A stretch of DNA of 64,000 nt from Halovivax limisalsi (lineage in GTDB: Archaea > Halobacteriota > Halobacteria > Halobacteriales > Natrialbaceae): NCBI RefSeq assembly GCF_023093535.1, contig NZ_CP095757.1:806001-870000 (forward strand). The letters run 5' to 3'. This document shows positions 6,104 to 8,214 of the stretch, piece after piece. The notes below the pieces were generated by a model. The model made no database searches and was not told the origin of the DNA. It saw only the letters and a list, made by a program, of their open reading frames with translations. A program made the position numbers and the translations under genes. Numbering within the stretch: the first letter of the stretch is position 1; each line of letters begins with the position of its first letter.

Positions 6104-6421
6104 TCAGACGCCCTGATCCCGAAACCGGCGGCAGTCGACTTCGACCGGCAATTCGTCGAAATCGTCGTCCGCGCCGACGACGAGCGTGGCTTCGATGTCG
6201 TGTGCGAGTGCGACGGCGTACGCGTCGGCGAGTGAGAGCTGCCCGTCGGCTTTTATCCGGCCGGCGAGGCGCCAGTCGGCTGCCTCGATTTGCACTCCCT
6301 GCCGATGGAGTGCTCGCACGTCCCTGTCGGCGACTCGCATCGAATCGTCGGTCGGTTCGTCGTCGGTCCCCTGGAACCGTGCGACGAGGTAGTACACCTC
6401 ACTTGCGTTGGTTTCGGACAG
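6104..6421 (-). pseudogene. vapC: vapC PIN toxin, 3' fragment cut off by a tnpB element
   Basis: Open frame from the edge of the mobile element to a stop, 105 codons. It begins LSETNASEVYYLVARF and continues to LADAYAVALAHDIEATLVVGADDDFDEL, which is the central and C-terminal part of a PIN-domain ribonuclease: the central acidic residue, the LADA.AVALA helix and the final acidic ADDDF motif are present. The start of the domain with the first catalytic Asp is on the other side of the element at 7871-7921. A GTG at 6397 could in principle start translation but would make only a partial, presumably inactive domain. Confidence 0.85.
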
Positions 6422-6560
6422 GTGACATCCTCCTCGCCGTAAATGGCGAGGCTTCCCGTACTGCAGTTGGGATATTTGCCGGTCTACGACACGACCTGTT
6501 CTCTCGTGCGGAACATACCGCTCTCGCGGTCGAACAGGTAGGTCGATGGCTGTGCCACAC
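6422..6560 (-). ncRNA. Predicted reRNA (omega RNA) 3' region of the tnpB element
   Basis: TnpB nucleases use an RNA made from the 3' end of tnpB and the element's right end, with the guide read from flanking DNA. Here the terminal hairpin (CCTCGCC paired with GGCGAGG, 6432-6451) and the conserved GGATGTCAC end fit that scaffold. The 5' limit is arbitrary because the RNA overlaps the tnpB coding end. The guide would be the minus-strand sequence starting at 6421 and running towards 6402, which is vapC coding sequence. Existence is inferred from the family, not seen as a promoter. Confidence 0.5.
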
Positions 6561-7734
6561 AGCCGTTACTCCTATCCTCGCCATGAGGACTCGGAGTTAT
6601 CTTCTGTCGCATGTTCTCCGCCCCGTTACAATCTGCGTTGGCTACCAATTCACATGACGAGCAGACGTACAAGCCACGATACTTCCGATTCGACTTCGTG
6701 TCGTCACCACATGCCGAACACGTTTTCGAGGTGTTCCACTCGTTCTCTTTCAGCACCTCGACGCCACGAATCTCGCCTTTGTATTCGAGGTACTGGGAGA
6801 TGCGGTCGAACGCCCACGTATGGAGTTTCTTGTTACCAGTCTTGCCCCAGTCCGACTCGCGCACGTCTTCGGGCCAACTCACCGCGAGCGTGCCAACACC
6901 ACGTTCAACACACTCCGTGATGATGGTATCCGTGAGAACGTGGTAGAAGTGGGTTTCACGGTCAGTGAGTTTCCGACGCGCCCACATCGACTTCTCAGAC
7001 GGGCCATTCTCACCCTCAGTATCGTATTCGGATCGCTTGAAGTAGTGTTTGTCTTCTTTGAGGGAGTTACCAGGGTACAGGACGTACTCATCGGGGAAGG
7101 CGACGGTTGCGATATTCATGATGCCAAGGTCGATACCTGCAACACCGTCGCCTGCTGAGTCATTCGGATTGAGTTCGACTTTGCAGACGAAGTGCAGTTC
7201 CCACTCGTTGCCGTTCCAGACAGCACGAACGTTTTGCACTCGGGTGACTTCCGAGAGGTCGACGTCTGGTCGGGTCTGGTACTCACAAAGCAGGAAGTCC
7301 GACCAATTCCCCTTGAGGTTCGACCCTTTGCTGAGTCGGACACGGTTGTTTCCGGGGTCGTGTCTGAAGCCGTCTGCTTTGAACGTGATCGTGGAACGCG
7401 GTCGGGTATCGCCCTGTTTTCGGTAGCCGGGCGGATTCGTCTCTGGGTCTTTGTGTCGCAAGTCGAACCACGACTGGAAAGCGTCAGAAAGTTCTTCGAT
7501 GACTTTCTGACTTGATTGTGCGTTCAAGTCTTTCCAGCATGACTGGTTCTTCATATACGATTTCAGCGTTCCCTCATCGGGGATTTCGCCGGTTGCATCC
7601 CAGATACGGTCTGCTGTCCATCGTGCGACGTTCCAGATTTTCGAGGCGGAATCTCCGAGTGAGTCGAGGCCATCGCAGACCTGATGCTGGTTCTGGATGG
7701 AACCAACGTAGGTGCGTGTGACCTCAATCGCCAT
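6484..7734 (-). CDS. tnpB: TnpB RNA-guided nuclease
   Basis: 416 residues, normal length for the family. The RuvC-like acidic residues are all visible: GIDLGIMNIA (first Asp, about 205), PEDVRESDWG with the second-site Glu (about 300), and ANADCNGAENMRQ (last Asp, about 375). The zinc finger is intact (CSACG then CSSC). The protein therefore looks catalytically competent. TnpB cuts DNA matching its guide next to a short adjacent motif and helps the element persist. The AT content is visibly higher than in neighbouring genes, consistent with transfer. The ATG at 7734 begins the usual MAIEVTRTY-type N-terminus. Confidence 0.93.
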   Translation of the reverse strand: MAIEVTRTYVGSIQNQHQVCDGLDSLGDSASKIWNVARWTADRIWDATGEIPDEGTLKSYMKNQSCWKDLNAQSSQKVIEELSDAFQSWFDLRHKDPETNPPGYRKQGDTRPRSTITFKADGFRHDPGNNRVRLSKGSNLKGNWSDFLLCEYQTRPDVDLSEVTRVQNVRAVWNGNEWELHFVCKVELNPNDSAGDGVAGIDLGIMNIATVAFPDEYVLYPGNSLKEDKHYFKRSEYDTEGENGPSEKSMWARRKLTDRETHFYHVLTDTIITECVERGVGTLAVSWPEDVRESDWGKTGNKKLHTWAFDRISQYLEYKGEIRGVEVLKENEWNTSKTCSACGDDTKSNRKYRGLYVCSSCELVANADCNGAENMRQKITPSPHGEDRSNGCVAQPSTYLFDRESGMFRTREQVVS

Positions 7735-7832
7735 AGATAGCCTATGTAGACAAAACTAATTAATGGTGTGGATGAGCGTGGAATATCTGGCCTGCAATCG
7801 TCCGTAGATTGTCGAGGGAGTGTCGTATTCTC

Positions 7833-7852
7833 TCCCGCCGTAAACGGTGGGA
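7833..7852. repeat. Hairpin near the left end of the tnpB element
   Basis: TCCCGCCG and CGGTGGGA pair over 8 bp with one G-T wobble around a TAAA loop. Read on the minus strand it resembles the right-end hairpin and is followed by AGAGAATACGACAC, similar to the right-end GGAGGATGTCAC. It is either the left-end hairpin of this element or the worn right end of an older insertion. Confidence 0.55.
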
Positions 7853-7870
7853 ATCCCTCCTCGCAGAAAG

Positions 7871-7921
7871 ATAGAGGTACGCGATGATCGCTTCGGCATC
7901 GAATACGTACTCGTCAGTCAT
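7871..7921 (-). pseudogene. vapC: vapC PIN toxin, 5' fragment
   Basis: The ATG overlaps the antitoxin stop codon (ATGA) and encodes MTDEYVFDAEAIIAYLY before the frame runs into the element. The D in YVFDAEAI matches the first catalytic Asp of PIN domains. Joined to the 6104-6421 fragment this gives a PIN protein lacking roughly 25 internal residues, so about 70-80 bp of vapC appear to have been lost at the insertion site. Confidence 0.8.
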
Positions 7922-8214
7922 TTCTCGTCGTCCGGACGCAATCGATCGGCCTTCGCCTCCTCGCGGCGTTTTTCCGCCGCTTTGTGTGCCCGCGCGCGTT
8001 TCAGGATCTCGCCGTCCTCGTGCTCCCCGGCGTGAATGCCGTGCAGTTCCTCGGGTGAGGGCACCGGCTCGATAACGATCCGGTCGTCCGCTTCGTAGAC
8101 GAACACCGCTCCCGGCGTCTCGATCCCGAATTTCTCCCGTAACCGCTTCGGAATCGTCGCCTGCCCTTTCTGCGAGACGTTTACCACGGCGGGCTCGTTC
8201 GTACAACTGGACAT
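7918..8214 (-). CDS. vapB: AbrB/SpoVT-type antitoxin of a disrupted VapBC pair
   Basis: 98 residues. The N-terminal half is a swapped-hairpin AbrB fold: VVNVSQKGQATIPKRLREKFGIE, then VFVYEADDRIVIEPV. The charged C-terminal half (HEDGEILKRARAHKAAEKRREEA) is the usual toxin-binding tail. Such proteins bind their own promoter and neutralise the PIN ribonuclease. It overlaps the toxin start by ATGA, the classical TA arrangement, but the toxin is broken by the tnpB element. The antitoxin reading frame is intact, so it may survive as a regulator or as an antidote to related toxins. Confidence 0.85.
   Translation of the reverse strand: MSSCTNEPAVVNVSQKGQATIPKRLREKFGIETPGAVFVYEADDRIVIEPVPSPEELHGIHAGEHEDGEILKRARAHKAAEKRREEAKADRLRPDDEK

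What the first reader, a model, noticed from the sequence alone, without database searches (positions are those of the whole stretch)
6402..6470. tnpB guide RNA predicted to target the uninterrupted vapC allele
The element's right end (hairpin plus GGATGTCAC) touches vapC sequence at 6421. TnpB systems read their guide from the flanking DNA just past the right end, so the guide here should match vapC codons beginning LSETNAS. The nuclease keeps all three RuvC acidic residues. It could therefore cut empty vapC alleles in other chromosome copies, relevant in polyploid haloarchaea, and promote gene conversion of the toxin knockout.
Basis: partly seen in the sequence, partly recalled or inferred. 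Interest (0 to 1): 0.6.

Follow-up and report, generated by a model that had tools for sequence, protein, structure and literature searches.

The report
tnpB jumping gene inside haloarchaeal vapC
A small tnpB-carrying jumping gene sits in a toxin gene of a salt-loving archaeon and its predicted guide RNA does read into that gene, but 69 bases of the gene are missing at the junction, so the claim that it would cut the intact gene is possible yet unproven; the machinery itself is of a known kind.

Summary
The anatomy is real. A 1449-bp IS200/IS605-group, tnpB-only element (window 7870-6422, minus strand) interrupts vapC. Thirty copies across the family fix its ends: it starts with C just after CTAT and ends ...GGATGTCAC at 6422, so the guide starts at 6421 (CTGTCCGAAACCAACG...) in codons L-S-E-T-N-A-S. 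Empty sites in other genomes show CTAT joined directly to the right flank, making CTAT the predicted TAM and insertion normally loss-free. The right-end hairpin covaries.

Three corrections. (1) This insertion is not clean: codons 18-40 (69 nt) of vapC, present in nearly all 51 compared homologs, are absent. The predicted target is CTAT+guide, and an intact allele has it only if its codons 39-40 end in CTAT (1 of 51 homologs). (2) The canonical RuvC-II glutamate is not kept: it is Ser286 (Gly in relatives). Asp202 and Asp368 are kept, and invariant Glu332 is the likely relocated residue. (3) No Y1 TnpA is found in the genome, and no CTAT+guide target within two mismatches remains in the assembly.

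TnpB is under strong purifying selection (dN/dS ~0.1), so an active nuclease is likely. Gene-drive and donor-joint models are published. A new member of a known kind.

The parts
7918..8214 (-). AbrB/MazE-fold antitoxin gene of the interrupted module, intact
   Evidence: Pfam MazE_antitoxin E=7e-9, NCBIfam AbrB-family domain
7871..7921 (-). vapC 5' fragment, codons 1-17 (MTDEYVFDAEAIIAYLY)
   Evidence: aligned to codons 1-17 of intact homologs
7871..7874 (-). predicted transposon-adjacent motif CTAT
   Evidence: CTAT precedes the element in 22 of 30 copies; empty sites L093-L095 and L168 show CTAT joined directly to the right flank
6422..7870 (-). IS200/IS605-group (IS1341-type, tnpB-only) element, 1449 bp
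   Evidence: ends from the copy alignment and empty sites; copy L040 has the same 1449-bp spacing between its flanks
7834..7851 (-). left-end hairpin CCCACC-GTTTAC-GGCGGG with one A.C mismatch
   Evidence: sequence; other copies have CCCGCC...GGCGGG or other complementary versions
6484..7734 (-). tnpB, 416 aa; RuvC-I Asp202, RuvC-III Asp368, Ser286 at the canonical RuvC-II Glu position, invariant Glu332
   Evidence: NCBIfam guided_TnpB 173.5 bits against cut-off 100
6422..6576 (-). predicted omegaRNA/reRNA scaffold (3' end of tnpB plus right end; 5' limit approximate)
   Evidence: alignment A2, covariation; fold z-score -2.34 with the guide included
6432..6451 (-). right-end hairpin of the guide RNA
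   Evidence: 3 of 8 pairs changed on both sides with pairing kept; the innermost pair is A.C in this copy only
6402..6421 (-). predicted guide, CTGTCCGAAACCAACGCAAG (16-20 nt from 6421 downwards)
   Evidence: first bases past the right end; guide rule from PMC8612924
6104..6421 (-). vapC 3' fragment (PIN domain, 105 aa), codon 41 onwards; codons 18-40 (69 nt) absent from the locus
   Evidence: Pfam PIN E=6e-7; comparison with homologs

Best explanation
This is an IS1341-type member of the IS200/IS605 group that inserted 3' of a CTAT motif in vapC on the same strand as the gene, inactivating the toxin. The tnpB transcript runs through the right end into vapC, and a 3' piece with ~16-20 nt of vapC (6421-6402) is kept by TnpB as guide RNA. 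TnpB, probably with a rearranged RuvC site (Asp202, Glu332, Asp368), would cut DNA that carries CTAT followed by that guide, and repair from an element-bearing chromosome would copy the element in. The occupied locus is spared because it has TCAC, not CTAT, before the guide. This makes TnpB a retention or homing device for the site; the knockout of vapC is a by-product. Whether the full-length vapC allele is such a target depends on whether it had CTAT at codons 39-40. I think this somewhat likely, because a CTAT repeat at codons 16-17 and 39-40 (as in homolog L089) would also explain why the 69-nt deletion ends exactly at the element. Shown: ends, TAM-like motif, clean empty sites of other copies, hairpin covariation, purifying selection, missing 69 nt. 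Inferred: guide RNA production, cleavage, homing, relocated glutamate.
For: Ends and CTAT from 30 copies. Precise empty sites: GGCTAT|CACGTGG in L093-L095 for copy L039, and GATACTGCTAT|AAAGAGAA in L168 for copy L040, which has the same left-end type as the window. Covarying right-end hairpin. dN/dS 0.07-0.14 against 28 copies and only 2 private amino-acid changes. guided_TnpB family hit well over its cut-off. Own genome has no CTAT+12-nt match with 2 or fewer mismatches; the occupied locus matches only with TCAC in place of CTAT. Homolog L089 has CTCTAT at codons 16-17 and GGCTAT at codons 39-40. Rearranged RuvC-II TnpBs can cleave: one RII-r5 ortholog was active (PMC10278001). Haloarchaea express omegaRNAs from such elements (PMC12558985).
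Against: No expression or cleavage data. The canonical RuvC-II Glu is absent. 50 of 51 vapC homologs lack CTAT at the guide-adjacent position. No Y1 TnpA found in the genome, so excision that would recreate a target is not expected from its own genes. Small departures in both hairpins (an A.C pair in each) may mean slow decay. The TAM is inferred from insertion sites, not from cleavage.
Confidence: 0.7

Rival explanations
1. A variant within the best explanation: the vapC allele was already 69 nt shorter (or was shortened together with the insertion), and the intact allele has no CTAT before the guide. The guide then targets only the shortened empty site, so intact vapC copies are never cut and the first reader's gene-conversion scenario does not occur.
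For: 69 nt missing exactly at the element boundary; 50 of 51 homologs lack CTAT at codons 39-40; a TAM is required by TnpB (PMC8612924).
Against: The normal insertion rule needs CTAT next to the guide at the time of insertion; a deletion endpoint falling exactly at that place by chance is improbable unless a CTAT repeat was there, as in L089.
Confidence: 0.4
2. TnpB here is not a cutting enzyme. Lacking the RuvC-II Glu, it acts as an RNA-guided DNA binder (TldR-like) or is inert.
For: Ser286 at the canonical Glu position.
Against: Asp202, Asp368 and an alternative Glu332 are invariant in 22 aligned family members; multi-copy, still bounded by IS ends and under purifying selection; a rearranged RuvC-II clade member was shown to cut (PMC10278001).
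Confidence: 0.15
3. In this strain the element is an inert relic: fixed, without TnpA, not expressed; the guide match is only an automatic result of where it landed.
For: No Y1 TnpA found; single copy of this tnpB in the genome; mismatched hairpins; no target left in the genome.
Against: Intact 416-aa frame with no sign of relaxed selection; conserved scaffold.
Confidence: 0.25

Closest known systems
ISDra2 TnpB of Deinococcus radiodurans (Karvelis 2021, PMC8612924)
   Same: tnpB on the element, guide read from the right flank, motif 5' of the insertion (TTGAT there, CTAT here), no target duplication, donor-joint retention model
   Different: ISDra2 has tnpA and a working RuvC site with D191; here no Y1 TnpA in the genome and Ser at the canonical RuvC-II Glu position
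Haloarchaeal IS200/IS605-associated omegaRNAs / sotRNAs of Halobacterium salinarum (PMC12558985)
   Same: haloarchaeal IS200/IS605-group tnpB with a 3'-overlapping guide RNA and right-end hairpin
   Different: different element; no RNA data for this one
TnpB gene drive in multi-copy plasmids (Mears 2025, PMC11870625)
   Same: the proposed spread through copies of a multi-copy replicon
   Different: tested on plasmids in bacteria, not on archaeal chromosomes or a toxin gene
TnpB clades with rearranged RuvC-II (RII-r3, RII-r5; PMC10278001)
   Same: non-canonical residue at the RuvC-II position
   Different: which of these clades, if either, this protein belongs to was not tested

Membership tests
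IS200/IS605 group, IS1341-type (tnpB only) | tnpB with OrfB_IS605 and TNB domains | tested here: met
   Cas12f1-like_TNB 65.9 bits, OrfB_IS605 47.7 bits, both over cut-off
IS200/IS605 group, IS1341-type (tnpB only) | insertion 3' of a short fixed motif, no target duplication | tested here: met
   empty sites of copies L039 and L040; at the window locus itself the empty site could not be seen
IS200/IS605 group, IS1341-type (tnpB only) | subterminal imperfect hairpins instead of terminal inverted repeats | tested here: met
IS200/IS605 group, IS1341-type (tnpB only) | no tnpA on the element | tested here: met
   no Y1_Tnp match in the whole genome, though controls ring
RNA-guided TnpB nuclease (OMEGA) | membership of the guided_TnpB family | tested here: met
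   NF040570 173.5 bits, cut-off 100
RNA-guided TnpB nuclease (OMEGA) | canonical RuvC D-E-D triad | tested here: not met
   D202 and D368 kept, canonical E is S286; E332 invariant. Rearranged clades are counted in the family by the literature
RNA-guided TnpB nuclease (OMEGA) | structured scaffold ending at the right end | tested here: met
   covariation in the right-end hairpin
RNA-guided TnpB nuclease (OMEGA) | guide RNA made and guided cleavage at the TAM | not testable with these tools
   needs RNA sequencing and a cleavage assay
TldR (nuclease-dead guided repressor) | lost RuvC catalytic residues and loss of transposon ends | tested here: not met
   ends kept, many copies, purifying selection; two of three RuvC residues canonical

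The most novel reading that the evidence does not exclude
TnpB cut full-length vapC copies in a polyploid archaeon at a CTAT at codons 39-40 and drove conversion of all chromosome copies to a toxin knockout, carrying the adjacent 69-nt deletion along: a natural RNA-guided gene drive on an archaeal chromosome, run by a TnpB with a relocated RuvC-II glutamate.
Probability: 0.12. Interest if true: 0.6.

Novelty: new member of a known kind. Interest (0 to 1): 0.3.

Why it matters
It gives a haloarchaeal TnpB subfamily with a defined element, a predicted TAM (CTAT), a covarying scaffold and a RuvC-II site without the canonical Glu: a ready test case for TnpB function in polyploid archaea. If active, it would extend TnpB homing to archaeal chromosomes and help explain how such elements persist in genomes without a detectable TnpA.

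Tried and rejected
Glu289 as the RuvC-II residue: rejected, Lys in L034 and not conserved in relatives. CTATC as the motif: rejected, because in-gene copies L039 and L058 and the empty sites give CTAT plus flank. Empty orthologous site in the genus: the vapBC module is not found next to the peptidase in four same-genus genomes. Relatives of vapC or tnpB in viral contigs: none. Rfam over the whole window at gathering thresholds: no match. Site of copy L047: the related site in L105 has CCGT where CTAT is expected, so it neither helps nor contradicts strongly. Flanks inside vapC were not joined for searching; the pieces were searched apart. Structure prediction was not run: the loci that would form the alignment came from tools outside its stated list, and no coordinates are returned to measure the active site.

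Full report
Setting. The window lies in a single-contig 3.89-Mb haloarchaeal genome. Relatives in the same family include Natrialba magadii (G045 and NC_013924.1 give the same vapC coordinates), so the host is placed in the Natrialbaceae. On the minus strand the order is: AbrB/MazE-fold antitoxin (8214-7918), vapC codons 1-17 (7921-7871), a tnpB element (7870-6422), then vapC from the codon equivalent to 41 onwards (6421-6104).

Ends of the element. TnpB copies 87-92% identical to this one occur in many genomes of the family. On the left, 22 of 30 copies have CTAT directly before a C that begins the conserved left end; the others have a changed left end or a variant motif. Empty sites settle the boundary: genomes G045, G043 and G046 carry the gene hit by copy L039 without the element as GGCTAT|CACGTGG, and G041 carries the site of copy L040, which has the same left-end type as the window, as GATACTGCTAT|AAAGAGAA. 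So the element starts at 7870, is 1449 bp, follows CTAT, and normally inserts without loss or duplication.

The guide. By the published rule (PMC8612924) the guide is the first ~16-20 nt past the right end: CTGTCCGAAACCAACGCAAG, 6421-6402, in codons LSETNAS of vapC. The scaffold upstream (6576-6422) folds somewhat better than shuffles (z -2.34), and the right-end hairpin shows real covariation across 22 copies. Production of the RNA is inferred; related omegaRNAs are expressed in Halobacterium salinarum (PMC12558985).

The missing 69 nt. Of 51 compared vapC homologs, 49 have 23 codons between the AYLY and LSETN equivalents, one (L092) has 22, and one row (L071) has an unrelated 5' part; here there are none. 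Both junctions fall on codon boundaries. Because insertion is normally clean, the pre-insertion sequence beside the guide should have been CTAT. Either a full-length allele had CTAT at codons 39-40, or the allele was already shortened. One homolog, L089, has exactly the layout that would explain everything: CTCTAT at codons 16-17 and GGCTAT at codons 39-40, so that a deletion between the two CTAT repeats, before or after insertion, would leave CTAT next to the element with 69 nt lost. Four of 51 homologs have Tyr at codon 40, one of them with CTAT. Whether the intact allele of this species was a target therefore cannot be told from the sequences at hand. The guide differs from all homologs by 3 to 10 of 20 positions, so other species' vapC genes are not good targets.

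The nuclease. TnpB is a clear guided_TnpB member. Asp202 (GIDLG) and Asp368 (NADCN) are kept. The RuvC-II glutamate of Cas12f (E334 in chain 8j3r_A) aligns with Ser286, both with the single sequence and with a 22-member profile; the ~55% relatives have Gly there. Glu289 is not conserved. Glu332 is invariant in all 22 aligned members and is my candidate for a relocated catalytic residue; this is inference. Rearranged RuvC-II clades are described and one member was active (PMC10278001). dN/dS of the window copy against 28 others is 0.07-0.14, like the others among themselves (median 0.095), with two private changes: no sign of decay in the protein.

Mobility and targets in the genome. No Y1 TnpA is found in this genome, although the search rings in control genomes and in 14 of 17 relatives tested. 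The element is single-copy. A search for CTAT plus the first 12 guide bases finds no match with two or fewer mismatches; the occupied locus itself matches only with TCAC in place of CTAT. So the element is safe from its own guide and has nothing left to cut in the assembled genome. Same-genus genomes lack the vapBC module next to the neighbouring peptidase gene, so no empty site is available there.

Verdict. The observed junction is right; the RuvC statement is not, in canonical terms; and the target claim is conditional. The mechanism, including spread through multi-copy replicons, is established or proposed elsewhere (PMC8612924, PMC11870625). The finding is a well-defined new member of a known kind, with a useful correction about the TAM and the deletion.

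Noticed in passing
L033, L035, L036, L038, L043, L045, L056 right ends; L132: About 47 extra nt forming two small hairpins (GTCGTCGGGC..GCCCGACTGCYTGAGGGA..TCCCTCTCCG) sit inside the right-end hairpin of some copies, and a like insert occurs in a ~55% identical TnpB lineage. It may be an optional module of the guide scaffold shared between lineages.
   Followed up: no
L034, L044, L051, L045, L053 left ends: These copies have a different left end with CAGACGTAGTCTG- or CAGAACGC..GCGTTCTG-type palindromes in place of the usual hairpin, while the right end keeps its usual form.
   Followed up: no
L123-L142 right ends: Nearly all of the ~55% identical relatives end in GGATGTCA followed by A or T instead of C, and have Gly at the canonical RuvC-II Glu position.
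   Followed up: partly
G000:C1:3357834-3358202 and 3309984-3310175: Two further TNB-domain matches (divergent TnpB-like frames of 433 and 182 aa) elsewhere in the same genome.
   Followed up: no
window 7834-7851 and 6432-6451: Each end hairpin of this copy carries an A.C mismatch where most other copies pair, a possible sign of slow decay without TnpA.
   Followed up: partly
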